Shown here: one piece after another, positions 10,116 through 45,392 of the stretch
How positions within the stretch are numbered: position 1 is the first letter of the stretch
Layout of the letters: each line of letters opens with the position of its first letter
DNA from: Hylemonella gracilis ATCC 19624
GTDB lineage: Bacteria > Pseudomonadota > Gammaproteobacteria > Burkholderiales > Burkholderiaceae_C
Length of the DNA stretch: 64,000 bases
Direction of reading: 5' to 3'
Assembly: GCF_000211835.1 (NCBI RefSeq)
Contig: NZ_AEGR01000042.1
Location: 62,001 to 126,000, forward strand
Translations under genes and position numbers: made by a program
The notes under the pieces: generated by a model
What the model saw: only the letters and a program-made list of their open reading frames with translations
Databases searched by the model: none
What the model was told of the DNA's origin: nothing

Positions 10116-10152
10116 GCTCCCGCGGAACTGGCTCTGCCAGGCCGCCGGGAGC
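10116..10152 (+). repeat. 37-base covarying hairpin element, copy 1
   Basis: Outer arms are GCTCCC (10116-10121) and GGGAGC (10147-10152). The core reads CGCGGAACTGGC, then TCT, then GCCAGGCCG. Two other copies in the window have exactly the same length and compensating changes. It lies between ssuC and the second binding-protein gene. The GC-rich tail that follows (to about 10208) includes GGAGGGGGTGGCGCAGCG, which resembles the flanks of the other copies. Confidence 0.8.
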
Positions 10153-10215
10153 GCCTCTCCGCGCAGCAGGAGGGGGTGGCGCAGCGAACGAAGGGAGCGA
10201 AGCCTGGGGTGGCCA

Positions 10216-11094
10216 TCACTGATACCCTGGATGCCAACGCAACCACCAATACTCAAGACCTCGCGCGAGCACGTCGGCCAGCTTGCCCAGCAAGGCGTAG
10301 AGCAGGATGCCCACGAGCACGATGTCGGTCTGCAGGAACTCGCGTGCGTTCATGGTCAGGTAGCCGATGCCCGACTGGGCGGAGATGGTCTCGGCCACGA
10401 TCAAGATCACCCACATCAGGCCCAGCGAGAACCGCAGGCCGACCAGGATGGACGACAGCGCGCCCGGCAGGATGATCTGACGGTAGAGCTGCCAGCGGTT
10501 CAGGCCGTAGGTGCGGCCCATCTCGATCAGGCCCGGGTCCACGCTGCGGATGCCGTGGAAGGTGTTGAGGTAGATCGGAAAGAACACCGAGATGGCGATC
10601 AGGAACAGCTTGGCGCTCTCGTCGATGCCGAACCAGAGGATGACCAGCGGAATCAGCGCCAGCGCGGGGATGTTGCGCAGCATCTGAAAGCTCGAATCCA
10701 ACAGCGTCTCGGCCCAGCGCAGCGTGCCCGTGAGCAGGCCCAGGACCAGCCCCAGTCCGCCACCAATGGCCAGACCCAGCAGGGCACGGCCCGCGCTGAC
10801 CTTCACATGCGTCCACAGCTCTCCCGAGGCGGTGAGGTTCCAAGCCGCGACAGCGACATCCGCGGGCGCGGGCAGCACGCGGGTGGACAGCCAGCCTCGG
10901 ACCGAGGCGAGTTGCCAGACGGCGATCAGCGCGATCGGCACCAGCCAAGGCAAGAGCCTGAGCCACATCAAGCGGGCCAAGCCGCGTAAGGTGGCGAGCA
11001 CGGCGGGCCAAGCGCTCGCCACCGGCTCGCTGCTCACCCCGGCCCCGAAGCTTGGCAGCGGCGTCACTTGCAATTCATGCGCGGGCACACTCAT
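10216..11094 (-). CDS. ssuC: SsuC, sulfonate ABC transporter permease
   Basis: Inner-membrane permease of about 292 residues. AAGGAGG stands five bases before the ATG at 11094, which decides the start. The hydrophobic core starts near residue 45 (LLPWLVPIALIAVWQLASV), and the domain shows IPALALIPLVILWFGIDESA, FPIYLNTFHGIRSVDPGLIE, GRTYGLNRWQLYRQIILPGA and YLTMNAREFLQTDIVLVGIL. These match SsuC closely. The gene follows ssuD with a gap of 11 bases, so it is part of the ssu operon. Confidence 0.94.
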   Translation of the reverse strand: MSVPAHELQVTPLPSFGAGVSSEPVASAWPAVLATLRGLARLMWLRLLPWLVPIALIAVWQLASVRGWLSTRVLPAPADVAVAAWNLTASGELWTHVKVSAGRALLGLAIGGGLGLVLGLLTGTLRWAETLLDSSFQMLRNIPALALIPLVILWFGIDESAKLFLIAISVFFPIYLNTFHGIRSVDPGLIEMGRTYGLNRWQLYRQIILPGALSSILVGLRFSLGLMWVILIVAETISAQSGIGYLTMNAREFLQTDIVLVGILLYALLGKLADVLARGLEYWWLRWHPGYQ

Positions 11095-11105
11095 GGCAGC
11101 CTCCT

Positions 11106-12302
11106 TCATTGCGCCGCGACCCGCGCGGGCGCGTCGATGTTGGCGACGACCTCGCCGAACGGGCCACTCAGCGGGCGCCCGGGCAAGGGAGTGTTCGCGG
11201 CCTCGGCGAAGCGCTGCCGCGTGTCCAGCGTCAGCAGCGGGAACACCAGCTCCGCGAAGCGGTAGGCTTCCTCCAGATGCGGATAGCCCGAGAGCACGAA
11301 GGTGTCCAAGCCCAGCGCCGCGTATTCCTCGATGCGCGCGGCCACCTGTTGCGGGCTGCCCACCAAGGCCGTGCCCGCACCGCCGCGCACCAGGCCCACG
11401 CCGGCCCAGAGGTTGGGGCTGATTTCGAGCGAGGCGCGGTCGCGCTTCTTGCCGCCCTGGTGCAGCGCGGCCATGCGGCGCTGGCCTTCCGAGTCCATCT
11501 TCGCGAAGGCGGCCTGCGCCTTGGCCACGATGCCGTCGTCCAGGCGGCTGATGAGATCGTCCGCGGCGGCCCAGGCCGCCTGCTCCGTCTCGCGCACGAT
11601 GACGTGCAGGCGGATGCCAAACTTCACGGTGCGATTGAACTTGGATGCGCGGGCCTTCACGTCGGCCACCTTCTTCGCCACCTGGGCGGGCGGCTCGCCC
11701 CAAGTCAGGTAGGTGTCCACCTGCTCGGCCGCCAAGTCGTGCGCGGCCTCGGACGAACCGCCGAAGTAGACCGGTGGGTAGGGCTGCTGCAAGGGCGGGT
11801 AGAGCAGCTTCGCGCCCTTGACGCTCAGATGCCGGCCTTCGTAGTCGTAGGCCGGGGCCTGGGGGTCGTGGCTGCGGGCGATGATCTCGCGCCAGATGCG
11901 GATGAACTCGGCGCTCTGCTCGTAACGCGCGGCGTGGTCAAGGAACACGCCGTCACCCTCCAGCTCGGCCTGGTCCCCCCCGGTCACAAGATTGATCAGC
12001 AAGCGCCCGCCGGAGAGCCGGTCAAAGGTCGCGGCCATGCGCGCCGCCAGGCTGGGCTGGTGCAGGCCCGGGCGCACTGCGACCAGGAATTTGAGCCGCT
12101 GGGTCACGGGCAAGAGGCTCGCGGCCACGACCCAAGGGTCTTCACAGGAACGGCCCGTGGGAATCAACACGCCCTCGTAACCCAGTCGATCGGCCGCCTG
12201 CGCCACCTGCGTGAGGTAGGCATGGTCGACCTGGCGCGCGCCCTCGCCCGTGCCGAGGTAACGGCTGTCGCCGTGGGTGGGGATGAACCAGAAAACTTTC
12301 AT
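11106..12302 (-). CDS. ssuD: SsuD, FMNH2-dependent alkanesulfonate monooxygenase
   Basis: Cytoplasmic monooxygenase of 398 residues that uses reduced FMN from SsuE and oxygen to split alkanesulfonates into aldehyde and sulfite. It begins with the hallmark [17 protein letters not shown] and contains [55 protein letters not shown] and [15 protein letters not shown], all typical of the bacterial luciferase-like SsuD group. The ATG at 12302 has GAGG upstream and starts at the conserved N-terminus. Length is slightly above the family norm of about 380. The sulfite made here can be reduced by CysI encoded later in the window. Confidence 0.96.
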
Positions 12303-12336
12303 GAGGGACCTCAAAGGGTTGGAGCGACTCAGATGG

Positions 12337-12534
12337 TCAGATGGCAAAGGCAAACCGCAGGGCGCGTCGCGCGCGACGATGGCGCACCCGCGTCAACGGA
12401 ACATCGGCCAGCGATCGATGCGCCGACGCACGCTGGGGCAAGGGCCAGGCCAGGCCCCAGTCCCGCGCCGAGGTTTGCAACACCCGCGTGGTGCTCGCGG
12501 GGAACACGGGGATTTGGAATGCGGAAATGCTCAT
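12337..12534 (-). CDS. Small hypothetical protein between ssuA and ssuD
   Basis: An open frame of 65 codons on the operon strand sits in the 263-base gap between ssuA and ssuD. It starts [20 protein letters not shown] and ends in an Arg-rich stretch. Counting third codon positions gives about 51 of 65 as G or C, somewhat above what non-coding DNA of this GC content would give. No good ribosome-binding site precedes the ATG and no domain is recognised. It may be a real small ssu-operon protein or simply a spacer. Confidence 0.4.
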
Positions 12535-12565
12535 GGCTCGGTGTCCCGGAAGCGCGCGCTTCACA

Positions 12566-13615
12566 TCACTTCGTCTGCAAGGCCACGGCTTCGCTGATCT
12601 TGATGGGCTTGGGAATCAGCTTCAGCTCGAAGAAGGTGTCGGCGATCTTCTGTTGGTCGGCGGCCACGGCGGGCGTGATCGGACGCACATTGAATTCGTA
12701 GCGGGTCAGCGCGGTCTCGACCACCGCGACGGGCAGGCCCTGTAGCGGCGCGATCAGCTCGGCCGCGGCGCGCAGGTTCTTCTTGATCCAAGCGCCCTTC
12801 TCCACCGAGTCCTCGAACAGGGCCTGGATGATCTTGGGATGCTTTTGCACGAACCCTGCCTCGGCCAGGTAGAAGGCGTAGTTGTTGACCACGCCCTTGC
12901 CGTTGGCCAGGATGCGCGCGCCGATGGATTGCTCCGCCGCCGCGGCGAACGGGTCCCAGATCACCCACGCATCCACGGCACCCTTTTCGAATGCAGCGCG
13001 GGCATCGGCCGGGGCCAGGTAGATCACCTGCACGTCGGACAACTTGAGGCCGTTTTTCTCCAGCGCCTTGACCAGCAGGTAGTGCACGTTGCTGCCCTTG
13101 TTGAGGACCACCTTACGGCCCTTGAGGTCGCTCACGCTCTTGATGGGCGAGTCCTTGGGCACGAGGATGGCCTCGGCCTCGGGCGACGCCGGGTCATGGC
13201 CGAAATAGACAAACTTCGCGCCTGCGGCCTGGGCGAATATGGGCGGCGCCTCGCCCACGTAACCCACGTCGACGGCACCCACGTTCAGCCCCTCCAGCAA
13301 TTGGGGTCCGGCGGGAAACTCCACCCACTTGACGGTGGCATTCAACGCGCCGAGTTTTTTCTCAAGACTGCCCTGGGCTTTTTGCAGGGTCAGCAAGCTG
13401 GCGGATTTTTGAAAGCCGATCCGGAGATCCACCGGTGCGCCTTGGGCCGACGCCGGGAACAGCACGGAGAGGTTCAGCAACAGCATCAGGACGATCAGGG
13501 CGAGCGACACCGCCGCGCTGAAGAAAAGATCACTCCAACGGTAAGGCGTCGGGTGGGCGGGGTCCTGGGCAAATTCGTCCAGAGCGTTGTCGCCCTGCGA
13601 GATCGGGTGGGTCAT
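12566..13615 (-). CDS. ssuA: SsuA-like aliphatic sulfonate-binding protein with an N-terminal membrane-anchor extension
   Basis: Binding protein of about 349 residues. AAAGGA stands eight bases before the ATG at 13615. It has a hydrophilic lead of about 30 residues (MTHPISQGDNALDEFAQDP) before the hydrophobic segment AAVSLALIVLMLLLNLSVLF and PASAQG. This is longer than a usual signal peptide and could keep the protein membrane-bound. The mature domain shows [40 protein letters not shown] and GAVDAWVIWDPFAAAAEQ, typical of SsuA. It lies between ssuE and ssuD in the classical ssuEAD order. Confidence 0.9.
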   Translation of the reverse strand: MTHPISQGDNALDEFAQDPAHPTPYRWSDLFFSAAVSLALIVLMLLLNLSVLFPASAQGAPVDLRIGFQKSASLLTLQKAQGSLEKKLGALNATVKWVEFPAGPQLLEGLNVGAVDVGYVGEAPPIFAQAAGAKFVYFGHDPASPEAEAILVPKDSPIKSVSDLKGRKVVLNKGSNVHYLLVKALEKNGLKLSDVQVIYLAPADARAAFEKGAVDAWVIWDPFAAAAEQSIGARILANGKGVVNNYAFYLAEAGFVQKHPKIIQALFEDSVEKGAWIKKNLRAAAELIAPLQGLPVAVVETALTRYEFNVRPITPAVAADQQKIADTFFELKLIPKPIKISEAVALQTK

Positions 13616-13819
13616 GGCGGTCATCCTTTGGTACTGAAGTACGGAACTGGATCGAGGTCGGCGGGTATCGGCGTGCGGCGGGCAAAGCAGGGGCCAGCCG
13701 CCTGGCCGGCGGTTTGAGTTCGGAGAATGCGAAGAGAGAGAGCAGCCCGGCGCGATCGCGCAGTCTTGAGCGGTCACGCCGCGCCGCGGAGGCACGCCTT
13801 CACGACGGCGCGCGAGATG

Positions 13820-14422
13820 TCAGACGCTACATCGCACGTCGGCGAAAGCGATCGATTCCTCGAAGCCCGCCTTGACCGGCTGGGCGGGCGCCGCGCGCAG
13901 CCCCTCGGCATACAGCGTCGACGCCGCTTCGCCAAGGCGCGCGTCAATGTCAGGATGAATCACGTACGCCTCCTCGGGGGTGAGGGCCACCTGGGCGTCC
14001 GTGGCGTAGACGCCCGGCAGGATGTGGCGCGCCGCCAGGGATTGAAGCACCGGCCGCAAGGCGTAGTCGAGCGCCAGCATGTGGTGCGGGCTACCGCCCG
14101 TGGCCAGGGGCAGCACGACCTTGCCCTTGAACGCCGTCTGGGGCAGCAGGTCCAGCAGCAGCTTGAGCACGCCGCTGTAAGCCGCCTTGTAGACCGGGGT
14201 GGCCACCACGATGGCCTGGGCTTCGGCCACCCGCCGTGCCGCGTCTTGCACCGCGGGATGGCCGAAATCGGCTTGCACCAAGGCCTGCGGCGGCAGGTCA
14301 CGGACCGACAAGCGATCGATCAGCGTGCCGCGTCCGGCCGCCAGCAAACGCCCCACCCGGTCCAGCAGCGCCGCGGAGCGAGAACGCTCGGAAGGACTGC
14401 CTGCAATCAACAAGACCGACAT
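13820..14422 (-). CDS. ssuE: SsuE, NAD(P)H-dependent FMN reductase
   Basis: Flavodoxin-like reductase of 200 residues that supplies FMNH2 to SsuD. It begins MSVLLIAGSPSERSRSAALL, the phosphate-binding loop, and contains IVVATPVYKAAYSGVLKLLL, DLLPQTAFKGKVVLPLATGG and HHMLALDYALRPVL, all typical of SsuE. The ATG at 14422 has GGAG six bases before it. Only 47 bases separate it from the sbp stop upstream, so sbp and ssuE are probably in one transcript. About 200 bases follow before ssuA with no gene; they hold a short dyad GTACT-GA-AGTAC at 13631-13642 just before the ssuA ribosome-binding site. Confidence 0.95.
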   Translation of the reverse strand: MSVLLIAGSPSERSRSAALLDRVGRLLAAGRGTLIDRLSVRDLPPQALVQADFGHPAVQDAARRVAEAQAIVVATPVYKAAYSGVLKLLLDLLPQTAFKGKVVLPLATGGSPHHMLALDYALRPVLQSLAARHILPGVYATDAQVALTPEEAYVIHPDIDARLGEAASTLYAEGLRAAPAQPVKAGFEESIAFADVRCSV

Positions 14423-14469
14423 GAATGCTCCAGGGTGTGGGGTGGGGTGAGAAGCTGGGGTGGCTGCGT

Positions 14470-15492
14470 TCACTTCTTGGCGTAGATTTGGTCGAAGCTG
14501 CCGCCATCGGCGAAGTGATCCTTGTCCGCCTTACCCCAGCCGCCAAAGGCCTGGTCAATCGTGAACAGATTGAGCTTGGGGAACTGCTTGGCGTACTTGT
14601 CAATGGCCTTCTTGGAAACGGCCGGACGGTAGAAGTTCTTGCCCGCGATGTCCTGGCCTTCCTCGGAGTACAGGTACTCGAGGTAGGCTTGGGCGACTTT
14701 GCGCGTGCCCTTCTTGTCCACGTTCTTGTCGACCACGGCGACGGCGGGCTCGGCCAGGATGGAGATCGAAGGCGCCACCACGTCGAACTTGGTGCCGAAT
14801 TCCTTCTCGAGCAGGTAAGCCTCGTTTTCCCAGGCGATCAGCACGTCACCCTGGTTGCGCTGGGCGAAGGTGATGGTGGAGCCGCGCGCGCCGGTGTCGA
14901 GCACGGGCACGTTGGCGTACAGCTTCTGCACGAATTCCTTGGCCTTGGCATCGCCACCGTACTTGCGCTTGGCGAATTCCCAGACCGCAAGGTAGTTCCA
15001 GCGCGCACCGCCGGACGTCTTGGGGTTGGGGGTGATCACGCTCACGCCGGGCTTGATCAGGTCATCCCAGTCCTTGATGCCCTTGGGGTTGCCTTGGCGC
15101 GTGACCAGCACGATGGTCGAGGTATAGGGCGAGGAGTTGTGCGGCAGCTTCTTCTGCCAATCAGCGGCCAGCCAGCCGCCGTTCTTGACCAGCGCGTCGG
15201 TGTCACCGGCCAGGGCCAGCGTGGCCACGTCGGCATCCAGACCGTCGATGATGGAGCGGGCCTGCTTGCCCGAACCGCCGTGGCTTTGCTTGATGGTCAC
15301 GTTCTGGCCGGTCTTCTCCTTCCAGTACTTGGCGAAGGCGGCGTTGAATTCCACATACAGCTCGCGCGTCGGGTCGTAGCTCACGTTGAGCAGGGTCACG
15401 TCCTGCGCCAAAGCCGGGGTGGCGGCAAGGCCGAGGACGGAGAACAGACCGGCCAGCAGGGGAAACTTGATAAAGTGGCGACGTTGCGTCAT
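14470..15492 (-). CDS. sbp: Sulfate ABC transporter periplasmic substrate-binding protein
   Basis: Exported sulfate/thiosulfate-binding protein of 340 residues. The signal peptide runs [19 protein letters not shown] to ATPALA, and AAGGA precedes the ATG at 15492. The mature part carries [60 protein letters not shown] and [16 protein letters not shown], which are conserved in Sbp/CysP. No cysT, cysW or cysA follows; ssuE comes next, so the membrane parts of the sulfate importer must lie elsewhere. It heads the minus-strand sulfur operon and shares an intergenic region with yggX. Confidence 0.95.
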
Positions 15493-15583
15493 GTCGGGTT
15501 CCTTGGTTCGAAGTTGGAATCGCTGCAATACAAAAATAAAGCGATGCAAGGCATTCTGGAGAGACATGACCCAAACTGGAACG

Positions 15584-15607: not shown

Positions 15608-15643
15608 TTAATCATCGATAAACACCTCCAAGAGATTCACGCC

Positions 15644-15916: not shown

Positions 15917-15977
15917 CCCCAGCCACCACGGCGCCGCACCGGACAAGGCCGGTGCGGGACCGCGCGCCCGCACCACG

Positions 15978-18047
15978 ATGAGCGAACCCGTCACCTGGCG
16001 CGAGGGCACGCCCTACAGCGCGCGTTTCGACGATCTCTACCGCACGACGGCGGATGGGCTGGCTCAGGCGCGGCGCATCTTTCTGGGGGGCTGCGGGCTG
16101 CGCGCCCCCGGTGCTGAACCCGCCGAAACGCCAACCCAGCATGCAAGTGCCTGGGCGGGTCAGCGCCAATGGCGCATTCTTGAAACCGGTTTCGGCCTGG
16201 GACTGAACTTTCTCGCTGCCTGGCAAGCTTGGCGGCACGATGGCCGGCGACCTGGCCTGCTGCATTTCGTCTCCATCGAGGCGTTCCCGGTCGCAGCCGA
16301 GGACATCGTGCGCGGCGCCCAGGCCTGGCCGGAACTGTCAGCGCAGGCCGAGGAACTGGCCGCGCAATGGCGGCGGCTGGAGCCCGGCGCGTCCTGTCCG
16401 GTGCAGCGACTGAGTTTCGAGCACGGCCGCGTGCTGCTCACCCTGTGCCTGGGCGATGTGCGTGACATGCTGCGGGAATTGCGCCCCACCCTGCCGCACC
16501 GCATGGACAGTGTGTTCCTCGATGGCTTCGCCCCCCAGGCCAACCCGGACATGTGGTCTCCCGACACCCTGCGCGAACTCAGCACCTTGGCCCGGCGCGG
16601 CGCCACCCTGGCCAGCTGGACGGCCAACGGCGCGGTGCGGCGCGCCTTGGCGCAAAGCGGTTGGCAGGTCGAGAAAGTGCCGGGCCTGCCTCCCAAGCGC
16701 GAGAGCATCCGCGCAGTGTTCGCGCCGCGCTGGGAGCCAACCCGCGCGCGTCCACCGGTGGACCACGAACCCGCACGCTGCGTGGTGATCGGCGCGGGCC
16801 TGGCTGGCGCGGCCGCCGCTGCCAGCCTCGCGCGCCGGGGCTGGCAGGTGACCGTGCTGGACGCAGGGCAGCCTTCGGGCCCAAGTCACTCATGGGGAGA
16901 GAGCTCCGCCCCTCGCGCTTCGGATCTGCAGGGCTCGTCCGAGGGTAGCTCCGCCGCGCGGGCGTCGGATCTGCAGGGCTCATCCGAGGGCAGCTCCGCC
17001 GCGCGGGCGTCGGATCTGCCCGTGGGCCTGTTCGCGCCCCATGTCTCGCCTGACGACAATCTGTTGTCGCGCCTGACGCGCGCGGGCATACGGCAGACGG
17101 TGCAGGCGGCCGAGGACTTGAGCCAGCAAGGCGTGCTGCGCGCGGGGCGGGACTGGTCACTCAGCGGGGTGCGCGACCAGGGCCATGCGGCACCGGTCAA
17201 CCATGCCTTGGCGGGTTGGATGAAACCGGCGCGGCTGGTGGCGGCCTGGCTCAGCACGCCGGGCGTGCAGGTGCGCGGCCAGGTCAGCGTCGCCGCCCTG
17301 CGCCGTGCCAGTACGGACGCGGTCTGGCAGGTGCTGGACGCGCAAGGGCGAGAACTGACCCAAGCCGAACTGGTGGTGGTCGCGGCGGCCCACAGCAGCG
17401 CGGCCCTGTTGAACGAGCATCTGCCGCCCGCCTCCCCAATGCCCCTGAACCCGGTGCGCGGGCAAATCAGCTGGGGCCTGCACCTGGACACTCCGCCGGA
17501 TGCCGCCAACGCGCCCTGGCCACCCACGCCCGTCAATGGCAACGGCCATTTCATTCCCAGCGCCCCGATGGACGCGGGCCGGGCCTGGCTTTGCGGCTCG
17601 ACCTACGAACGCGGCGAAACCGACCCGCGGCCCAGCGCCGCCGAGGTGGCTGCGGGGCATGCCGCGAACCTCGAGAAGCTGCGCGTTTTGCTGCCCGAGG
17701 TCGCGCAACGGCTCGCGCCCGACTTCGAGGCGGGCTCGGTGCGGGCCTGGAGTCAGATCCGGTGCACCTCGCGAGACCGGCGCCCCCTGGTCGGCTTCCT
17801 CGATGGGCGCGCGGGGCACACCGATGCCCCGTCGCTCGCCTCGCTCGTCACGCAGGTCACTCCCGTCCCGCACGGGCTCTGCCGTCTGGCCGTGCTGACG
17901 GCCCTGGGCTCTCGCGGGCTCAGCTTTGCCGCTCTGGGCGCCGAACTGCTGGCCGCGCAACTGCACGCCGAACCCTTGCCAGTGCCTCGCAGACTGGCCC
18001 AGGCCTTGGACATCCGGCGCGCCTTGCCCAAGACAGACGGCCCCTGA
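15978..18047 (+). CDS. mnmC: MnmC, bifunctional tRNA 5-methylaminomethyl-2-thiouridine biosynthesis enzyme
   Basis: Protein of 689 residues that finishes the wobble uridine modification mnm5s2U34. The N-terminal methyltransferase domain (about 1-240) has ILETGFGLGLNFLAAW, DSVFLDGFAPQANPDMWSPD and LASWTANGAVRRALAQSGW. The C-terminal FAD-dependent domain starts near 270 with CVVIGAGLAGAAAAASLARR and continues with VGLFAPHVSPDDNLLSRLTR and a C-terminal YERGETDPRPS region. Between the dinucleotide-binding loop and the DLPVGLFAPH stretch there is an in-frame tandem insertion (residues about 315-347). The start MSEPVTWREG at 15978 gives the conserved N-terminus. Confidence 0.93.
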   Translation: MSEPVTWREGTPYSARFDDLYRTTADGLAQARRIFLGGCGLRAPGAEPAETPTQHASAWAGQRQWRILETGFGLGLNFLAAWQAWRHDGRRPGLLHFVSIEAFPVAAEDIVRGAQAWPELSAQAEELAAQWRRLEPGASCPVQRLSFEHGRVLLTLCLGDVRDMLRELRPTLPHRMDSVFLDGFAPQANPDMWSPDTLRELSTLARRGATLASWTANGAVRRALAQSGWQVEKVPGLPPKRESIRAVFAPRWEPTRARPPVDHEPARCVVIGAGLAGAAAAASLARRGWQVTVLDAGQPSGPSHSWGESSAPRASDLQGSSEGSSAARASDLQGSSEGSSAARASDLPVGLFAPHVSPDDNLLSRLTRAGIRQTVQAAEDLSQQGVLRAGRDWSLSGVRDQGHAAPVNHALAGWMKPARLVAAWLSTPGVQVRGQVSVAALRRASTDAVWQVLDAQGRELTQAELVVVAAAHSSAALLNEHLPPASPMPLNPVRGQISWGLHLDTPPDAANAPWPPTPVNGNGHFIPSAPMDAGRAWLCGSTYERGETDPRPSAAEVAAGHAANLEKLRVLLPEVAQRLAPDFEAGSVRAWSQIRCTSRDRRPLVGFLDGRAGHTDAPSLASLVTQVTPVPHGLCRLAVLTALGSRGLSFAALGAELLAAQLHAEPLPVPRRLAQALDIRRALPKTDGP
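16920..17018 (+). repeat. In-frame 45-base tandem repeat inside mnmC
   Basis: Two near-identical 45-base units (16920-16964 and 16965-17009) start TCGGATCTGCAGGGCTC and differ at two positions; a third copy begins at 17010. Each unit encodes 15 residues containing ASDLQGSSEGSSA. The repeat lies between two conserved parts of the FAD domain, so it adds a loop without breaking the frame. Confidence 0.9.
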
Positions 18048-22798: not shown

Positions 22799-23773
22799 AT
22801 GGAGATGACCAAGGTCATGAACGCCCGCCCCCCCCTGGAACTTCGGCCGGAACTGCTGGCCCCTGCCGGGCATCAGCTCAGCAACGCCCACCTGGACGCG
22901 CTCGAGGAAGAAACCATCTTCATCCTGCGCGAAGTCGCCGCCGCCTTCGAGCGCCCCACCCTGCTGTTCTCGGGTGGCAAGGATTCGCTGGTGCTGCTCA
23001 AGTGCGCGGAGAAGGCTTTTGGCACTGGCAATCTGCCCTACCCGCTGCTGATGATCGACACTGGCCACAACTTCCCGGAAGTCACGGCCTTTCGCGACCA
23101 ACGCGCCAAGGAGCTCGGTGCCGAGCTCATCGTGCGCAGCGTGGAAGACTCCATGAAGCGCGGCACGGTGCGGCTGGCGCATGCTGGCGAATCGCGCAAC
23201 GCCCACCAGTCGGTCACCTTGCTCGAGGCCATCGAGGAATTCCGCTTTGACGCGCTGATCGGCGGTGCGCGGCGCGACGAGGAAAAGGCCCGCGCCAAGG
23301 AACGCATCTTCAGCCACCGCGACGGCTTCGGTCAGTGGAACCCCAAGGCCCAGCGGCCCGAACTTTGGACGCTGTTCAACACCCGCCTGGCGCCGGGCGA
23401 GCATTTCCGCGTCTTCCCCATCAGCAACTGGACCGAGCTGGACGTCTGGCAGTACATCGCCCGTGAAAACGTGGCCCTGCCCAGCCTCTACTACACGCAC
23501 CAGCGCGAAGTAGTGGAACGCAAGGGCCTGCTGGTGCCCGTGACCGAACTCACGCCGCCCAAGGCGGGCGAGCAGGTTGTCGTGCGCGACGTGCGCTTCC
23601 GCACCGTGGGCGACATCACCTGCACCTGCCCCGTGGCCAGCACCGCCGCGAACGCCAACGACATCGTGATCGAAACCCTGGCCGCCGAGGTCAGCGAACG
23701 CGGTGCGACGCGCATGGACGATCAAACCAGCGACGCTTCGATGGAGAAGCGCAAGAAGGACGGGTACTTTTAA
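22799..23773 (+). CDS. cysD: CysD, sulfate adenylyltransferase small subunit
   Basis: PP-loop ATPase subunit of 324 residues that with CysN makes APS from sulfate and ATP. The N-terminal LDALEEETIFILREVAAAFE, the PP-loop LLFSGGKDSLVLLKCAEKAF, RDEEKARAKERIFSHRDGFG and the C-terminal SMEKRKKDGYF are all characteristic. Start choice is open: ATG at 22799 directly follows the cysH stop, and ATGs at 22805 and 22817 are in frame; none has a clear ribosome-binding site, so coupling to cysH is likely. Confidence 0.95.
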   Translation: MEMTKVMNARPPLELRPELLAPAGHQLSNAHLDALEEETIFILREVAAAFERPTLLFSGGKDSLVLLKCAEKAFGTGNLPYPLLMIDTGHNFPEVTAFRDQRAKELGAELIVRSVEDSMKRGTVRLAHAGESRNAHQSVTLLEAIEEFRFDALIGGARRDEEKARAKERIFSHRDGFGQWNPKAQRPELWTLFNTRLAPGEHFRVFPISNWTELDVWQYIARENVALPSLYYTHQREVVERKGLLVPVTELTPPKAGEQVVVRDVRFRTVGDITCTCPVASTAANANDIVIETLAAEVSERGATRMDDQTSDASMEKRKKDGYF

Positions 23774-23811: not shown

Positions 23812-23848
23812 ACCACCAGCGGCCCGGCAAAGCCGGTCCCGCGGTGGT
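23812..23848 (-). repeat. 37-base covarying hairpin element, copy 3 (inverted orientation)
   Basis: Outer arms ACCACC (23812-23817) and GGTGGT (23843-23848) enclose a core that on the minus strand reads GCGGGACCGGC, TTT, GCCGGGCCGCT. Length is exactly 37 bases as in copies 1 and 2. It lies in the 93-base gap between cysD and cysN, ending 18 bases before the cysN start. CCCTCAAGGGG just before it resembles the GC-rich flank of the other copies. Confidence 0.8.
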
Positions 23849-23866: not shown

Positions 23867-25159
23867 ATGACGATTTCTAACATCTCATCCACCGCCTCCG
23901 CACTCAAGTTCATCACTTGCGGCTCAGTGGATGATGGCAAAAGCACGCTGATCGGCCGCCTGCTGGTCGACACCCGCGCCGTGCTGCAGGACCACCTGGC
24001 CGGCGTGCAGCGCCAGGGTCAGACCGACCTGGCCCTGCTGACCGACGGCCTCACGGCCGAGCGCGAGCAGGGCATCACCATCGACGTGGCCTACCGCTAC
24101 TTCAGCACCGAGACGCGCAAGTTCATCATCGGTGATGCGCCAGGCCATGAGCAGTACACGCGCAACATGGTCACCGCAGCCTCCAGTGCCGACGCGGCCG
24201 TGGTGCTGATCGACGCGACCAAGCTGGACTGGAAGAACCCCGCCCTCGCCCTGCTGCCGCAGACCCGCCGCCACAGCCTGTTGCTGCAACTGCTGCGCGT
24301 GCCGGGCATCGTGTTCGCGGTCAACAAGCTGGACGCGGTGGATGACGCGGCGCTCGCGTTCCAGCACATCAGCGCCCAATTGAACGCCTTCGCGCGCAGC
24401 GCGGGCCTGAACGTTCACGCCACCGTGCCCGTCTCCGCGCTCAAGGGCTGGAACGTGGTGGACGCCGCAGAGCAAAAAAACTGGTGCGGCTACGCGGGCC
24501 CGACCTTGCTGCAGATCCTGGAAGCGCTGCCCACGACCGCACCCGACCATGCCTTGCCTTTTGCCTTCCCCGTGCAGTGGGTCGAGAAGTTCTCGTCATC
24601 GGCCGACACATCTCAAGGCCGCCGAGTGTTCTGGGGCCGCGTGGCCGCGGGCGCGGTGCAGGCCGGCGACGAGATCAAGGTCTTCCCCAGCGGCCAGACC
24701 GCCACGGTGGCCCAGGTGCTGGACCATGTGCGCCAGCCTGGGACCGTGGGCGCGGGCCACAGCGCTGGCATCGTGCTGGACCGCGAGGTCGATGTGTCGC
24801 GCGGCGACTGGCTGCTATCGACCGGGCACGCCCCCGCCACTCAGACCCTGCAGGCCACGGTCGCCTGGCTGGACGACGAACCACTGGTGCCAGGACGGGT
24901 CTATTGGGCCCTGCACGGCCACCGCTGGGTCAAGGCGAAGGTGGCGCACATCGCGCACCGCTTGAACATCCAGACCTTGGCCGAGGAAGCGGCCCAGCAA
25001 CTCGAGGCCAACAGCATCGGCCACGTGGAGCTGACGCTGCAAGCCCCGCTGGCCGTCCTGCCCTTTGCCCAGGCGCGCGTGTTGGGCTCGCTCATCCTGG
25101 TTGACACGGCCAGCCACAAAACCGCTGGCGCCGTTCTGGTGAGGCCCGCCAAGGCCTGA
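23867..25159 (+). CDS. cysN: CysN, sulfate adenylyltransferase large subunit (GTPase)
   Basis: Elongation-factor-like GTPase of 430 residues that drives APS formation by CysD. G1 is [18 protein letters not shown] near residues 17-34, the switch region has [21 protein letters not shown]3 is [20 protein letters not shown], and NKLD gives G4. The protein ends at the beta-barrel domains, so there is no fused APS kinase domain. AGGA stands eight bases before the ATG. It is the last gene of the cys block; a 56-base gap follows before fdxA. Confidence 0.95.
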
Positions 25160-39501: not shown

Positions 39502-39532
39502 CCTGCCCGCGCCCCCGTCCCACGACGGGGGT

Positions 39533-39640
39533 GCATCCGCTAGGGGTGTTGCCGCGACTCCGGACCGCAAGGCCGACAGCACGGTGACTGAGAAAGTCCC
39601 TTTGAACCTGATTGAGGTAATCCTCGCGCAGGGAAGCCGC
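39533..39640 (+). promoter_or_regulatory. TPP riboswitch (THI element)
   Basis: The conserved parts appear in order: TAGGGGTGTTGC at 39541, GACTGAGAAAGTCCC near 39586-39600, CCTTTGAACCTGAT near 39599-39612, and TCGCGCAGGGAAGC at 39624-39637. These are the pyrimidine and diphosphate sensor loops of the thiamin diphosphate riboswitch. A possible expression platform follows: GCTCCAG (39639-39645) can pair with CTGGAGC (39670-39676) before the cytX start. It should turn the operon down when thiamin diphosphate is abundant. Confidence 0.95.
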
Positions 39641-39712
39641 TCCAGTTGTCCACTCAAGACACCGACCCGCTGGAGCCCAGCCCACCTGCCTACGTTATTT
39701 CGGATTTAACGC

Positions 39713-40987: not shown

Positions 40988-41829
40988 CCGTCATGAAACG
41001 CTATCCCCGGGTGCTGTCGATCGCCGGCTCGGACAGCGGTGGCGGCGCGGGCATCCAGGCCGACCTCAAGACCATGGCGGCCCTGGGCTGCTACGGCATG
41101 ACGGCCATCACCGCGCTGACCGCGCAGAACACCCAGGGCGTCACGGGCATCCACGCGGTGCCGCCGGAGTTCCTCAAGGCGCAGATCCAGGCGGTGGTGG
41201 AAGACATCGGCGTGGACGCGCTCAAGATCGGCATGTTGCACGCGCCCGAGATCGTCGAGGTGGTGGCCTGGGCCATCCGCCATTACGGCATCGAACGCGT
41301 GGTGCTGGACCCGGTGATGGTGGCCACCAGCGGTGACCGTCTGATCGCCGAAGCGACGGTGAGCGTGCTGGTCCAGCAGCTGTTCCCCCTGGCCACCGTG
41401 GTCACCCCCAATCTGGACGAGGCGGAACTGCTGCTGGGCCGCAAGATCGACGGGGTGTCGGCGTTGGAAGGCGCGGCGCGCGAGCTGCTGGCCATGGGCG
41501 CGAAGAGCGTGCTGCTCAAGGGCGGTCATCTGCCCGGCGACGAGGTGGTGGACCTGCTGCTGCCGCGCGACGGCGCGCCGCTCTACCTCCAGGCCGCGCG
41601 CATTGCCAGCCGCAACGTGCACGGCACGGGTTGCACCCTGTCGTCGGCCATCGCGTCCTACCTCGCGCAAGGCCATGACCTGCAAGACGCCGTGCGGCGC
41701 GCGCGAACCTGGATCCTGGGCGCTATCCAGGCCGGCAAGGACGTGCGCACCGGCGGACTGAACGGCGGCGCGGGCCATGGCCCGCTGAACCATGGGTACG
41801 CGCCCGTGGCCATGCGGGTGCTGGGCTGA
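40984..41829 (+). CDS. thiD: ThiD, hydroxymethylpyrimidine / phosphomethylpyrimidine kinase
   Basis: Ribokinase-like kinase of about 281 residues that phosphorylates HMP twice. VLSIAGSDSGGGAGIQADLK, TMAALGCYGMTAITALTAQN, VLDPVMVATSGDRLI and the catalytic loop NVHGTGCTLSSAIASYLAQG are all conserved. The ATG at 40984 is coupled to the cytX stop; an ATG at 40993 is the alternative. The C-terminus ends in a Gly-rich tail. Confidence 0.95.
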   Translation: MTVMKRYPRVLSIAGSDSGGGAGIQADLKTMAALGCYGMTAITALTAQNTQGVTGIHAVPPEFLKAQIQAVVEDIGVDALKIGMLHAPEIVEVVAWAIRHYGIERVVLDPVMVATSGDRLIAEATVSVLVQQLFPLATVVTPNLDEAELLLGRKIDGVSALEGAARELLAMGAKSVLLKGGHLPGDEVVDLLLPRDGAPLYLQAARIASRNVHGTGCTLSSAIASYLAQGHDLQDAVRRARTWILGAIQAGKDVRTGGLNGGAGHGPLNHGYAPVAMRVLG

Positions 41830-41856
41830 ACTCACGACGAACGCCCGCACGCACGC

Positions 41857-43116
41857 ATGAACGCACACACGAACAAAAGCAAAGAGACCATGCCCACATC
41901 GCGCGCTTCTTCCTCAGCCCTGGTGCTCGGCGCGGGCCTCATGGGCCGGCTGCTGGCCTGGCAGCTCGCGCGCCGTGGCTGGCACGTCACCGTGCACGAG
42001 GCCGCGGCCGCTGACGCGCCCAGCGACCCCGCGGGCGTGGCGCCAGGCGCAGCCGCGCGGGTGGCGGCGGCCATGTTGGCGCCGCTGGCGGAATCGGCCA
42101 TCACCGAACGCAACGTGGTCGAGATGGGACGCTACGCGCTGACACGCTGGCCACAATTGCTGGGCCAGCTGAGCCAGCCGGTGTTCTTCCAGCAAGAAGG
42201 CACGCTCATCCTCTGGCACCGGCAGGACGCGGCCGAAGCACGGCGCTTCGCGCAACTGCTGCGGGCCACGAACGAGCAGGTGCCGCAGCTGCCGACCATG
42301 CAGACCTTGGACGCGAGCGGCGTGCACGCACTCGAACCCGGTCTGGAGCAGCGCTTCGCCCAAGGCCTGTACCTGCCAGGCGAGGGCCAGCTCGACAACC
42401 GGCAATTGCTGGCCGCCCTGCTGCACGAGCTCAAGGCCCTGGGCGTGACGCTGCACTGGAACAGCCGGCGCGCGCCGAAAGATCTGCCTCGACCAGAAGA
42501 CGGCCCGGTGGACTGGGTCTTCGACTGTCGGGGCCTGGGCGCGCGTGCGCTGATACCGTCCGCTTCCGGTGGCGAAGGAACTCAAACGCACGCCGCTTTG
42601 CACGGCGAAGAACCTGGAAAGCACGCCGCTGTGCGCGGCGACAGAATCGGAACGCACGCCGCTGTGCGCGGCGTGCGGGGCGAGGTCGCGCGGGTGCATG
42701 CGCCCGAGGTGAAGCTGACGCGGCCGACACGGCTGATCCATCCGCGCTACCCGATTTACATCGCGCCCAAGCAGGATGACATCTACGTGATCGGTGCGAC
42801 CGAGATCGAGAGCGATGACATGTCGCCGCCCAGCGTGCGTTCGACCCTGGAGCTGCTGAGCGCGGCCTATGCCGTGCACCCAGGTTTCGCCGAAGGGCGC
42901 ATCATCGAGATCGCCGCGCACTGTCGGCCCGCGCTGCCGGACAATCTGCCCGAGATCCGCGTGACACGCGGACCCGGCGTGCCCGTGATGCGCATCAACG
43001 GCCTCTACCGCCATGGCTTCATGATTTCCCCCGCGCTGCTGGACGCGGCACTGGACATCGTCGAACACAACCGACACACACTCGCCGAACAACTTGACCT
43101 CAGGATCGTGGCATGA
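41857..43116 (+). CDS. thiO: ThiO, FAD-dependent glycine oxidase
   Basis: Flavoenzyme of 419 residues that turns glycine into the imine used by ThiG. The FAD loop is ALVLGAGLMGRLLAWQLARR, AARVAAAMLAPLAES follows, and LIHPRYPIYIAPKQDDIYVI with GLYRHGFMISPALLDAAL mark the C-terminal part. Residues about 245-275 hold a tandem in-frame insertion. An ATG at 41890 is a possible later start. The stop overlaps the thiS start (ATGA). Confidence 0.92.
   Translation: MNAHTNKSKETMPTSRASSSALVLGAGLMGRLLAWQLARRGWHVTVHEAAAADAPSDPAGVAPGAAARVAAAMLAPLAESAITERNVVEMGRYALTRWPQLLGQLSQPVFFQQEGTLILWHRQDAAEARRFAQLLRATNEQVPQLPTMQTLDASGVHALEPGLEQRFAQGLYLPGEGQLDNRQLLAALLHELKALGVTLHWNSRRAPKDLPRPEDGPVDWVFDCRGLGARALIPSASGGEGTQTHAALHGEEPGKHAAVRGDRIGTHAAVRGVRGEVARVHAPEVKLTRPTRLIHPRYPIYIAPKQDDIYVIGATEIESDDMSPPSVRSTLELLSAAYAVHPGFAEGRIIEIAAHCRPALPDNLPEIRVTRGPGVPVMRINGLYRHGFMISPALLDAALDIVEHNRHTLAEQLDLRIVA
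42589..42673 (+). repeat. In-frame 33-base tandem repeat inside thiO
   Basis: Three copies of a 19-base palindromic block, CACGCCGCTGTGCGCGGCG in two of them, begin exactly 33 bases apart at 42589, 42622 and 42655. The first copy differs at two positions. The unit encodes 11 residues (HAAVRGDRIGT in one copy), so the frame is kept. It sits between two conserved parts of the enzyme. Confidence 0.9.
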
Positions 43117-43310
43117 AAGTGCTCATCAACCAACAGACCCATGAACTCGACAGCGACGCCACGCTGGCCGACGCGGTCGCGGCCATCGAGGCCAGGCCGC
43201 CTTTCGCGGCGGCGGTCAACACGCAGTTCGTGCCCAAGACGCAGTACGCCCAGCACCCCCTGCGCGACGGCGACCAGGTGGAGATCATTGCCCCGGTGAC
43301 CGGGGGATGA
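43113..43310 (+). CDS. thiS: ThiS, sulfur carrier protein of thiamin biosynthesis
   Basis: Ubiquitin-like carrier of 65 residues ending in Gly-Gly (IIAPVTGG), the site that carries sulfur as a thiocarboxylate. MKVLINQQTHELDSDATLAD and RDGDQVEII are typical. It overlaps both thiO and thiG, indicating tight coupling. The adenylating enzyme ThiF is not encoded in the window. Confidence 0.95.
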   Translation: MKVLINQQTHELDSDATLADAVAAIEARPPFAAAVNTQFVPKTQYAQHPLRDGDQVEIIAPVTGG

Positions 43311-44140
43311 CGATGCCTTTGACCCCCGCGAAGCACAACGACATGCAAACCCCTGATCCCTTGATCCTCTACGGCGAACCCTTTGCCAGCCGCTTGCTGC
43401 TGGGCACCTCGCGCTACCCTTCGCCCGCCGTGCTGGAAGCCGCCGTGCAGACCGCCCGGCCCGCCATGCTGACGGCCTCGCTGCGCCGTCAGGGCGCGGG
43501 CTCGGTGTCGCCGGAAAGCGGCCAGGCCTTCTGGCAATTGCTGCGCAAGCTGGGCGTGCCCGTGTTGCCCAACACGGCGGGCTGCCACAGCCCGCGCGAG
43601 GTCATCGCCACCGCGCAGATGGCGCGCGAGGTCTTCGAGACCGACTGGATCAAGCTGGAGCTGATCGGCGACGACTACACCCTGCAGCCCGACACGCTCA
43701 AGCTGGTCGACACGGCGGATCAATTGCTCAAGGACGGCTTCAAGGTGCTGCCCTACTGCACGGAAGACCTGGTGCTCTGCCAACGCCTGGTGGACGTGGG
43801 CTGCCAAGCCGTGATGCCTTGGGCCGCGCCCATCGGCACGGGCAAGGGGCCGGTGAACCCGTATGCCATGCGCCAGTTGCGCGAACGCCTGGACGTGCCG
43901 CTGATCGTGGATGCGGGCCTGGGCCGTCCCTCGCACGCGTGCACCGTGATGGAGTGGGGCTACGACGCCGTGCTGCTCAACACCGCCGTGGCCCTGGCGC
44001 GCGACCCGGTGGCCATGGCGGGCGCCTTCGCCGCCGCCGTGCAGGCCGGGCGCGCCGCCTACCTCGGCGGTGCGATGGACGAACAAGAGGCCGCTCAGCC
44101 CTCCACGCCGGTGCTGGGCACCCCCTTCTGGCATGCATGA
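43307..44140 (+). CDS. thiG: ThiG, thiazole synthase
   Basis: TIM-barrel enzyme of 277 residues that forms the thiazole phosphate from deoxyxylulose phosphate, ThiS thiocarboxylate and the glycine imine. LLLGTSRYPSPAVLEAAVQT, LPNTAGCHSPREVIATAQMA, WIKLELIGDDYTLQPDT (with the conserved Lys) and IVDAGLGRPSHACTVMEWGY are conserved. Its start overlaps thiS. The gap of 229 bases to thiE is described separately. Confidence 0.96.
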   Translation: MTMPLTPAKHNDMQTPDPLILYGEPFASRLLLGTSRYPSPAVLEAAVQTARPAMLTASLRRQGAGSVSPESGQAFWQLLRKLGVPVLPNTAGCHSPREVIATAQMAREVFETDWIKLELIGDDYTLQPDTLKLVDTADQLLKDGFKVLPYCTEDLVLCQRLVDVGCQAVMPWAAPIGTGKGPVNPYAMRQLRERLDVPLIVDAGLGRPSHACTVMEWGYDAVLLNTAVALARDPVAMAGAFAAAVQAGRAAYLGGAMDEQEAAQPSTPVLGTPFWHA

Positions 44141-44369
44141 CGAACACCCCCAGGCTACGCGCCTCGTTGGGCGCTACGCCCCACGTGCCAACGCCAAAGG
44201 CACAGGCCCTTCGGACTGTCCAAGCCTGCGCAGGCAGGCTTGGAGCCGCAGCCCTCAGCCCCTTGCAGGGGACAACGCCAGTGGCTAAGGCCTTGCCGGT
44301 TCCACGGCATTCCCCGTTTCAATCGCTTCTTGCGGTCCAAGCTTTGCTCAACGTGAAAGCGCCATCGAC
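44141..44369 (+). other. Intergenic region between thiG and thiE with a degenerate hairpin element
   Basis: No gene is seen. GGCTACGCGCCTCGTTGGGC near 44154 recalls the GC-rich flank of hairpin copy 2, and GCCGGTTCCACGG (44295-44307) resembles the core read in reverse, apparently with its inner stem lost. AAGCCTGCGCAGGCAGGCTT near 44222-44241 can form a hairpin. The stretch may be a decayed copy of the 37-base element. Confidence 0.4.
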
Positions 44370-45323
44370 GTGACAACTCTGACCACCAACGCGCGCGCCA
44401 TCGTCGCGGCCCACCCTGACAAGGCCATTCCCGTCGTCGGCCAGCCGCAGCCGCGCTACAGCCTGGACGACCCGATCTACCGTGCCGCCGTGCAAGCGGC
44501 GCTGGCGCTGGGCTTCATCGAGATCGACGCCGAATGCCTGGCCTTGGCCTGGCTGGCGCAGTCCCGGCGCACCGGCCGTTTCGACCCGGACATCTGGCCG
44601 GTCGAGGCGGTGGACTTCGGCCTGCGCCCGCGCGGTGACGGCGCAGGGGCTTTCGCCGCCTGTCCCTCTCGCCTGGGCGTCTACGCCGTGCTGCCCGACG
44701 CGCGGTGGGTGGGTCGCATGGCCCATGCAGGCGTGCCCACGCTGCAATTGCGCTTCAAGTCACACGACCCGCAGGCCGTGCGGCGTGAAGTGCGCGCGGC
44801 CATCGAGACCGTGAGCGCCGCCCACCGGCAGCGCGGCGCGCGCAGCCTGCTGTTCATCAATGACCATTGGCGCGAGACGCTGGAGGTTCTGGCCAGCGAC
44901 GCCAGCCACCTCGAGTTCCTGGGCGTGCACCTGGGCCAGGAGGACATGGACGCAGCGGCCATGGTGGAAGGCTTCGAGGCCATCCGCGCCGCCGGCCTGC
45001 GCCTGGGCCTGTCCACCCACGGCTACGCCGAGATGCGACGCGCCGCCGCGCTGCAACCCAGCTACATCGCCATGGGCGCGGTCTACCCCACCACGCTGAA
45101 GCAAATGGCCACCGCGCCGCAAGGCCCAGGCCGCTTGGCCGCCTACGCGCGGCTGTTGCACCACGCGGGCTACCCCGGCGTGGCCATCGGCGGCATCTCG
45201 GCGGCGGAATTGCCCGTCATCAAAGCCACCGGTGTCGGCTCCCTGGCCGTGGTGCGGGCCATCACGGCCGAGGCCAATCCAGAAGCCGCAGCAGCCAGAT
45301 TAATGGCAGCCTGGGACCTCTGA
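44370..45323 (+). CDS. thiE: ThiE-like thiamin phosphate synthase with an N-terminal extension
   Basis: Protein of 317 residues starting at a GTG (44370). The ThiE domain occupies residues 101-317: RLGVYAVLPD, PTLQLRFKS, SLLFINDHWRETLEVLA, LGVHLGQEDMDAAAM, GLSTHGYAEMRRAAALQPSY and AMGAVYPTTLKQMA. It joins the pyrimidine and thiazole parts. The first 100 residues are extra compared with the usual protein of about 210; they contain DDPIYRAAVQAALALGFIEI and LALAWLAQSRRTGRF and match no domain I can name. Confidence 0.9.
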   Translation: MTTLTTNARAIVAAHPDKAIPVVGQPQPRYSLDDPIYRAAVQAALALGFIEIDAECLALAWLAQSRRTGRFDPDIWPVEAVDFGLRPRGDGAGAFAACPSRLGVYAVLPDARWVGRMAHAGVPTLQLRFKSHDPQAVRREVRAAIETVSAAHRQRGARSLLFINDHWRETLEVLASDASHLEFLGVHLGQEDMDAAAMVEGFEAIRAAGLRLGLSTHGYAEMRRAAALQPSYIAMGAVYPTTLKQMATAPQGPGRLAAYARLLHHAGYPGVAIGGISAAELPVIKATGVGSLAVVRAITAEANPEAAAARLMAAWDL

Positions 45324-45355
45324 ACATGATGATTGCCTGAGTCCTAGAGACCAGG

Positions 45356-45392
45356 GCACTCGCGGAACTGGCTTTGCCAGGCCGCTGAGTGC
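45356..45392 (+). repeat. 37-base covarying hairpin element, copy 2
   Basis: Outer arms GCACTC (45356-45361) and GAGTGC (45387-45392) enclose CGGAACTGGC, TTT, GCCAGGCCGCT. The length is 37 bases, as in copies 1 and 3. It lies after thiE. The following GC-rich part to about 45452 includes GGGGGGAAGGCGCGTAGCGC, a flank like those of the other copies, between the convergent thiE and diguanylate cyclase genes. Confidence 0.8.

What the first reader, a model, noticed from the sequence alone, without database searches (positions are those of the whole stretch)
10116..45392. Family of 37-base hairpin elements with compensating stem changes
Three copies (10116-10152, 45356-45392, and inverted 23812-23848) have exactly the same length. 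Outer stems are GCTCCC/GGGAGC, GCACTC/GAGTGC and ACCACC/GGTGGT. The inner stem ACTGGC/GCCAGG becomes ACCGGC/GCCGGG in copy 3. Both stems therefore change while pairing is kept, as expected of a selected fold. Similar GC-rich flanks suggest a composite element of about 100 bases. Two copies lie between genes of one operon (ssuC and the next gene; cysD and cysN) and one after thiE. They may set RNA stability or polarity, or be REP-like mobile repeats.
Basis: seen in the sequence. Interest (0 to 1): 0.72.

Follow-up and report, generated by a model that had tools for sequence, protein, structure and literature searches.

The report
Hairpin repeats docked after stop codons
Many related bacteria carry dozens of copies of a roughly 90-base DNA hairpin repeat that sits, nearly always facing the same way, right behind the stop codons of genes; it belongs to a known kind of repeat, but its precise and repeated docking at gene ends is unusual and can be tested.

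Summary
Three 37-nt hairpins with paired but different stems lie at the stated places; a fourth, degenerate copy was missed at thiG|thiE. They are the 3' part of a ~90-nt composite repeat: 39 copies at E<=0.01 in this genome, matches in 205 of 299 genomes sampled from the family.

Two facts go beyond the finding. The composite mostly lies directly behind a stop codon, in sense (median 2-5 nt in the 116 of 156 copies measured); in an unselected 1.2 Mb of a sister genome 19 of 19 copies do. At cysD|cysN, presence changes at least 12 times on a CysD tree, always in one orientation.

The paired changes are real, but over 156 copies G.U is no commoner than A.C (19 v 26), so copying as DNA explains them better than selection on RNA; 12 sister-species pairs lean the other way (7 v 1).

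It is REP-like, without conserved GTAG tag or flanking RAYT gene, probably related to the Bordetella BRE/Bor repeats. A post-stop mRNA hairpin is the likeliest function; that is inferred.

The parts
10116..10152 (-). 37-nt hairpin, copy 1 (outer stem GCTCCC/GGGAGC; foot GCGG/CCGC; inner stem CTGGC/GCCAG)
   Evidence: R1 68.1 bits
10111..10209 (-). whole composite of copy 1: C-run starts 6 nt after the stop codon (10218-10216) of the ssuC-like permease gene; the next gene (NMT1-type binding protein) starts at 10074
   Evidence: ends set by eye
23812..23848 (+). 37-nt hairpin, copy 2 (outer stem ACCACC/GGTGGT)
   Evidence: R1 69.9 bits
23777..23853 (+). whole composite of copy 2: C-run starts 3 nt after the cysD stop codon (23771-23773); cysN starts at 23867
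   Evidence: ends set by eye
45356..45392 (-). 37-nt hairpin, copy 3 (outer stem GCACTC/GAGTGC)
   Evidence: R1 74.3 bits
45351..45452 (-). whole composite of copy 3: C-run starts 1 nt after the stop codon (45456-45454) of the GGDEF gene; convergent with thiE (44370-45323, +)
   Evidence: ends set by eye
   Evidence: R1 match 44266-44320, 34.9 bits
44147..44316 (+). whole composite of copy 4, with an extra hairpin module inserted; C-run starts 6 nt after the thiG stop codon (44138-44140), before thiE (44370)
   Evidence: ends set by eye

Best explanation
This is a non-autonomous, REP-like palindromic repeat family of Comamonadaceae and some neighbouring Burkholderiales. One unit is about 90 nt. 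On the transcribed strand it reads: stop codon, usually 0-10 nt, C-run, small variable hairpin, CCCCC..GGGGG hairpin, then the 37-nt bulged hairpin with a conserved tip and a highly variable, mostly perfectly paired base. It spreads and is exchanged module by module as DNA, and this copying produces most of the 'compensating' stems. Copies are found mostly in the sense direction directly behind stop codons, between co-directional or convergent genes, so each becomes the start of the 3' untranslated or intercistronic mRNA of the gene before it. Most likely it works there as a post-stop hairpin: it separates the cistrons (breaking stop/start overlaps such as cysD|cysN) and changes the stability or translation of the upstream message, as reported for E. 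coli REPs. Shown here: family, structure, copy number, docking, orientation, repeated gain or loss, module differences at shared sites. Inferred: copying as DNA, transcription of the unit, and the effect on mRNA.
For: Covariation 0.433 against 0.159 shuffled, 98.7% of cells paired against 84.4%. 39 own copies at E<=0.01; 205 of 299 family genomes, 110 of 141 genera. Context of 156 copies in three genomes: 118 between co-directional genes in sense against 8 in antisense, 23 convergent, 2 divergent, 5 unclear. Stop to first CCC in the 116 copies with at most 75 nt between stop and hairpin: median 5 nt (99 tandem) and 2 nt (15 convergent), against hairpin end to next gene 54.5 and 38 nt. Unselected sister-genome stretch: 19 of 19 copies with a sense ORF ending 30-80 nt before the hairpin, random positions 13.4%. 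cysD|cysN: element in 16 of 80 named loci (E<=1e-4) and 8 of 22 readable genus loci, all in sense, at least 12 changes on the tree. G.U 19 against A.C 26 in three genomes; 114 of 156 copies fully paired. 25 outer-stem types with a few dominant (AACGCC 58 of 156), as expected of copying from masters. 155 of 156 copies without a U-run after the hairpin.
Against: No transcript data. The number of pairs changed on both sides (7) is not unusual among shuffles (79 of 500 reach it) and further pair types are fewer than shuffled. In 12 sister-site pairs one-sided changes involve G.U 7 times and A.C once, as selection on RNA would give; in the f4 genera G.U is 9 and A.C 0, although most of these share one subfamily state. 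The composite around copy 1 folds no better than its shuffles (z 0.6). The first paired base is within 15 nt of the stop in 111 of 116 predicted folds, but no control sequences were folded. No clean insertion footprint or target duplication was read at empty sites; the whole stop-to-start spacer differs. No transposase was tied to it. Docking is weaker in the f4 genera: 15 of 34 copies, many in tandem arrays.
Confidence: 0.55

Rival explanations
1. The 37-nt hairpin is an RNA element kept by selection on its fold; stems change one base at a time with compensation.
For: Sense orientation and docking to the stop codon; strong covariation; in 12 sister-site pairs one-sided changes involve G.U 7 times, A.C once; a two-sided change in module A between sister species (site 5, read by eye).
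Against: No G.U excess over A.C in the whole set: 19 v 26 in three genomes, 18 v 21 in all non-f4 loci (by subtraction; 95% interval of the G.U share 0.30-0.63). Outer arms differ in 6 of the 7 sites that G002 or G018 share with G003, by one to several pairs; three pairs at once between sister species at site 27.
Confidence: 0.25
2. A mobile element whose insertion is itself directed to the ends of translated genes in fixed orientation, for example through a protein or RNA that recognises terminated translation or the 3' end of a transcript.
For: At least 12 changes at cysD|cysN with one orientation only; docking to all three stop codons (TGA 73, TAA 29, TAG 14 of 116); in convergent pairs it sits next to the stop of the gene it is co-oriented with (median 2 nt to the C-run) and not in the middle (median 38 nt from the hairpin to the other gene).
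Against: Random insertion followed by selection against other positions could give the same picture; 8 antisense copies exist; no machinery found.
Confidence: 0.2
3. A classical REP mobilised by a RAYT (Y1 transposase).
For: Bulged palindrome of REP size, high copy number, mostly extragenic; a Y1_Tnp gene in 25 of 26 genus genomes, once in 22 of them; about half of the copies have GTGG at the foot (T-A foot pair in 83 of 156).
Against: None of 30 Y1_Tnp loci (98 kb) holds a copy; the gene is also in genomes with 0-2 copies; the tetramer is otherwise mainly GCGG or GCAG and is paired with a 3' foot.
Confidence: 0.1
4. Intrinsic transcription terminators.
For: GC-rich hairpins behind genes.
Against: Only 1 of 156 copies has 5 or more T in the 8 nt after the hairpin on the sense strand and 0 on the other; 118 of 156 lie between co-directional genes with the next start usually within 80 nt.
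Confidence: 0.05
5. The scattered presence at cysD|cysN comes from exchange of element-bearing alleles by homologous recombination, not from repeated acquisition.
For: Same place and orientation everywhere.
Against: Spacers and outer stems of the filled sites differ widely, also within Variovorax (read by eye; no phylogeny of the flanks was made).
Confidence: 0.15

Closest known systems
BRE, Beta-proteobacterial repeat element (Hot et al. 2011, PMC3110155; abstract and section 14 read)
   Same: About 90 bp (full-length Bordetella copies 75-91), high GC, usually intergenic, between co-directional or convergent genes in its Table 3, variable copy number, partly in tandem; reported in Bordetella, Azoarcus and Comamonadaceae (Polaromonas JS666 29, Delftia 13). 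My f4 units are 77-81 nt (from CCACCC to the hairpin end) and partly tandem.
   Different: The BRE sequence is only in figures and supplements that I could not see, so identity is not shown; mean GC of Bordetella BRE 69% against 75% (three genus genomes) and 79% (f4). The section read describes neither stop-codon docking nor compensated stems.
Bor repeats (Petrillo 2006, PMC1590033, passages; Bor-1 in Cozzuto 2008, PMC2267715, passages with Table 3)
   Same: Palindromic repeats of Bordetellae, 26-30 bp core, Bor-1 models of 93-117 bp, intergenic, likened by their authors to E. coli REP; grouped with REP-like sequences lacking terminal motifs in PMC3733652 (passages).
   Different: Sequence not seen; the passages speak of Bordetella only.
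E. coli REP / BIME (RepRanger paper PMC12306157, passages)
   Same: Extragenic palindromes behind genes; a subset within 15 nt of the stop codon is reported to stall ribosomes and lower translation.
   Different: In that paper 446 of 4,072 predicted E. coli REPs are within 15 nt of a stop; here the first base paired in the predicted fold is within 15 nt in 111 of the 116 copies measured (a different measure). Here one orientation prevails and there is no conserved GTAG tag and no flanking RAYT.

Membership tests
REP with RAYT (Nunvar 2010, PMC2817692, passages) | short, GC-rich extragenic palindrome in high copy | tested here: met
   39 own copies at E<=0.01, 91 in G002; 2 of 156 called as lying inside an ORF
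REP with RAYT (Nunvar 2010, PMC2817692, passages) | conserved GT(A/G)G head in front of the palindrome | tested here: not met
   not conserved: GTGG at the foot in about half (T-A foot pair in 83 of 156), otherwise mainly GCGG or GCAG, and paired with a 3' foot
REP with RAYT (Nunvar 2010, PMC2817692, passages) | RAYT gene flanked by two copies in inverted orientation | tested here: not met
   0 copies in 30 Y1_Tnp loci, 98 kb
BRE (Hot 2011, PMC3110155) | length 75-91 bp | tested here: met
   f4 units 77-81 nt, 27 measured; three genus genomes median 92, range 56-106, 102 of 115 within 75-100; ends are mine
BRE (Hot 2011, PMC3110155) | some loci with tandem copies, variable in number | tested here: inconclusive
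   tandem in f4 genera; no two of the 130 copies listed for G002 and G018 lie within 300 nt (by eye); variation within a species not tested
BRE (Hot 2011, PMC3110155) | present in Bordetella and in Comamonadaceae | tested here: inconclusive
   Comamonadaceae by named records (family name from general knowledge); the f4 genera are unnamed
BRE (Hot 2011, PMC3110155) | same sequence | not testable with these tools
   sequence only in figures and supplementary files
Intrinsic terminator | U-run after the hairpin | tested here: not met
   5 or more T in 8 nt in 1 of 156
Known Rfam family | match to a curated model | tested here: not met
   window at gathering score: only TPP; 5 element loci at E<=1: one weak hit elsewhere in L001

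The most novel reading that the evidence does not exclude
A mobile DNA repeat that is delivered, in one orientation, to the site of translation termination: it recognises the end of a translated gene and not a DNA sequence, and so repeatedly splits overlapping, translationally coupled gene pairs such as cysD|cysN with a hairpin.
Probability: 0.18. Interest if true: 0.85.

Novelty: new variant of a known kind. Interest (0 to 1): 0.5.

Why it matters
REP-like repeats have long been known (general knowledge) without agreement on whether they are selfish DNA or mRNA control elements. Here one junction (cysD|cysN) offers many natural filled and empty alleles across a family with cultured members, orientation and spacing are nearly fixed, and the wobble count can separate copying as DNA from selection on RNA once more copies are counted. 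That makes an old question directly testable, and it warns that compensated stems alone do not prove a selected RNA.

Tried and rejected
RAYT mobilisation: a Y1_Tnp gene is present, but no copy was found near it. Rfam: nothing for the element. Terminator: no U-run. Phage or plasmid carriage: 0 phage records for one query; 6 plasmid records for each of two queries. Insertion footprint: empty and filled sites of sister genomes were aligned; no target duplication could be read, because the whole spacer differs. tRNA stems as a positive control for the wobble test: too few (21 distinct tRNAs, 1 G.U, 0 A.C), so the power of the test rests on general knowledge. LexA neighbourhood, as a link of the f4 genera to the BRE locus beside lexA in the paper: a motif search in 21 loci (L409-L429) found none; inconclusive. 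My first frame for the ssuC flank was wrong, corrected. One row of the CysD tree (L175) sits on a spurious long branch and carries no element. Rows set aside: one of 157 anchor matches with under 3 outer pairs; of 143 sense-side copies the 27 with more than 75 nt between stop and hairpin were left out; the weak hit L123 (E 0.003) was not counted as an element; two fragment loci of CysD (L103, L104) were not read. In one search only 14 and only 19 candidates were scored per genome, so copy numbers there are lower bounds.
Full report
Observation. Each folds 3.7 to 4.6 standard deviations better than its shuffles. The 24-base core is found three times in the window, against 0.09 expected. A covariance model (R1; 54 positions, 15 pairs) built from 20 copies of this genome finds the same three and a fourth, decayed copy at 44266-44320 between thiG and thiE.

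Anatomy. On the transcribed strand a typical unit reads: stop codon; 0-10 nt; a C-run; a small hairpin of several types (for instance AGGCTGCGCGCACTTCGTGTCGC, or GAAGCGCCTTCGGCGCC); CCCCCTCAAGGGGG; the 37-nt hairpin; CCTGG, CCCCG or similar (75 of the copies printed). The 37-nt hairpin has a conserved bulged tip (foot mainly GCGG or GTGG, inner stem C[C/T]GGC, loop mostly NAA) on a highly variable six-pair base with 25 different arms in 156 copies. From C-run to just past the hairpin it is 56-106 nt, median 92, mean GC 75% (115 copies). An internal module of about 70-75 nt, itself palindromic, is present or absent at one and the same site in relatives (glyA|nrdR, gene names by resemblance, sites 28 and 111), and the fourth window copy carries such a module.

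Spread. The window's genome (3.62 Mb, 115 contigs) has 39 copies at E<=0.01 (150 of 5,265 candidates scored). Of 41 genomes searched (own included), 22 have copies, all in the same genus (22 of 25), up to 91 per genome; none of the 16 genomes of other families there had one. In the family, 205 of 299 genomes and 110 of 141 genera match. In a sample of 399 genomes of the order, 14 match, five of them outside the family: three in family f4, one each in f3 and f20. The f4 copies are partly in tandem. Named records with the element at cysD|cysN are titled Variovorax, Hydrogenophaga, Xenophilus, Xylophilus, Curvibacter sp. PD_MW3, Hylemonella sp. and some unclassified Burkholderiales; that these are Comamonadaceae is general knowledge. 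The Curvibacter and Hylemonella records coincide, by match coordinates, with genomes G024 and G004 of the window's genus as the tool defines it.

Docking and orientation. In three genomes (own, G002, G018) I called the flanking genes of 156 copies with a codon-usage scorer written for the purpose. 118 lie between co-directional genes in the sense direction, 8 in antisense, 23 between convergent genes, 2 between divergent genes, 5 unclear. Of 143 copies with a sense gene upstream, 116 have 75 nt or less between stop and hairpin. In these the first CCC is a median of 5 nt (99 tandem) or 2 nt (15 convergent) behind the stop codon, while the distance from the hairpin to the next gene is 54.5 (100 tandem) or 38 nt (15 convergent). 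In convergent pairs both neighbours are 3' ends, so closeness to the co-oriented stop codon is not a matter of room for a ribosome-binding site. All three stop codons occur (TGA 73, TAA 29, TAG 14). A scan independent of the gene caller, in 1.2 Mb of a sister genome that was not chosen for copies, took copies with at least 5 of 6 outer pairs: a sense ORF of 100 or more codons ends 30-80 nt before the hairpin in 19 of 19; random positions gave 13.4%, the opposite strand 5 of 19. In six further sets the share was 15 of 34 (f4), 6 of 8, 14 of 16, 20 of 28, 27 of 33 and 89 of 119, against 10-15% at random. The same hairpin scan on the joined 1.2 Mb gave 20 copies, and 1 on the reversed sequence.

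One junction, many events. The start codon of cysN overlaps the last base of the cysD stop in 41 of 80 named loci by a simple rule, and in 10 of 22 genus loci (12 by the rule, two of them other composites). The element lies between the genes, directly behind the cysD stop, in 8 of 22 readable genus loci (23 examined) and in 16 of 80 named loci at E<=1e-4. All R1 hits in these 80 loci, 20 of 20 including weak ones and ones elsewhere, are in the sense direction. On a CysD tree of 96 rows with 22 element-bearing ones, at least 12 changes of state are needed; they cannot be polarised. Comamonas records and two genus members carry other C-run/hairpin composites at the same place. Exchange of alleles could explain part of this, but the spacers and outer stems of filled sites differ, even within Variovorax (by eye).

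Compensation: RNA or DNA? The pairs covary strongly by the score, though the number of pairs with two-sided changes is reached by 79 of 500 shuffles. If pairing were kept by selection on RNA, single changes that leave G.U should be tolerated more than those that leave A.C. On the sense strand of 156 copies the counts are: outer stem 14 G.U and 13 A.C, foot 4 and 9, inner stem 1 and 4. 114 copies are fully paired; among the 30 with one non-standard pair it is G.U 8 times and A.C 16 times. Over all loci held, the outer stem plus two foot pairs give 27 and 21; in f4 alone 9 and 0, so 18 and 21 without f4 (95% interval of the G.U share 0.30-0.63). The f4 excess is mostly one shared subfamily state. 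A tRNA control was too small to be useful. Against this, in 12 sister-site pairs of own genome and G003 the one-sided changes involve G.U 7 times (two and one of them at sites 9 and 10, two at the decayed site 33) and A.C once, while three two-sided changes all sit at site 27. So the whole set looks like copied perfect palindromes with neutral decay, and the vertically inherited pairs may show some RNA-level constraint; the numbers are small. Between sisters the module before the hairpin can be replaced outright (sites 4, 6, 14). In more distant genomes the outer arm differs at 6 of 7 shared sites.

Turnover. Of 16 own sites that map to the 1.2 Mb of G003, 12 hold the element in the same orientation, 1 in reverse, 3 have none. 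Of 28 G002 sites, 6 hold it, 20 do not, 2 could not be mapped; of 5 G018 sites, 1, 3 and 1. The empty sites that I aligned have different, mostly short spacers, and no target duplication can be read.

Mobilisation. A Y1 transposase gene occurs in 25 of 26 genus genomes, once in 22 of them, but no copy lies in any of 30 such loci, and genomes with 0-2 copies have it too. So the RAYT criteria of Nunvar 2010 (PMC2817692, passages) are not met.

Mechanism. Shown: position, orientation, predicted folds that begin within 15 nt of the stop in 111 of 116 (no control folded), no U-run. Reported for E. coli (PMC12306157, passages, citing an earlier study that I did not read): REPs within 15 nt of a stop codon stall ribosomes and lower translation. 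Inferred: these units act likewise as post-stop hairpins, or as barriers to mRNA decay, and separate overlapping cistrons. Against: the composite of copy 1 folds no better than shuffles (z 0.6); copies 2 and 3 do (z -2.2 and -4.5); the stretch of copy 4 that I folded, which ends inside its hairpin, gives z -1.7. Whether the benefit lies with the host or with the repeat is open.

Known and new. The closest descriptions found are BRE (PMC3110155; abstract and section 14 read), Bor repeats (PMC1590033, passages) and Bor-1 (PMC2267715, passages). None of the passages that I read reports stop-codon docking in fixed orientation for them; Petrillo 2006 does report that stem-loops in general concentrate on the 3' side of genes. 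Ten library searches listed, by title and start of abstract, no paper on this repeat in Comamonadaceae other than the BRE paper; one search showed 20 of 121.

Noticed in passing
L089, L172, L179-L182, directly after the cysN start codon: A second repeat family (GCTACAAAATCAATAGCTGCT... and variants) appears to lengthen the N-terminus of CysN in several Comamonadaceae.
   Followed up: no
L113, L120, L123, L148 (Comamonas) and L110/L083/L092, behind the cysD stop codon: Different C-run/hairpin composites occupy the same place as the described element, so the junction is a meeting point of several repeat families.
   Followed up: partly
[quoted passage not shown]
   Followed up: no
L021 about 1470-2166: Y1_Tnp (RAYT-like) gene, present in 25 of 26 genus genomes (once in 22) without copies of this repeat nearby; its own partner repeat, if any, is unknown.
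   Followed up: partly
window 39532-39651: TPP riboswitch, 56.6 bits, near the thiamine genes.
   Followed up: no
window 16902-16991 and 42560-42673: Adjoining repeats of 45 nt (2 copies) and with a 33-nt spacing (3 copies).
   Followed up: no
hairpins 115-141 nt behind the stop codon in the three-genome set: A second distance class (20 of 143 sense-side copies) that fits units carrying the extra palindromic module of about 70-75 nt; inferred from a few sites only.
   Followed up: partly
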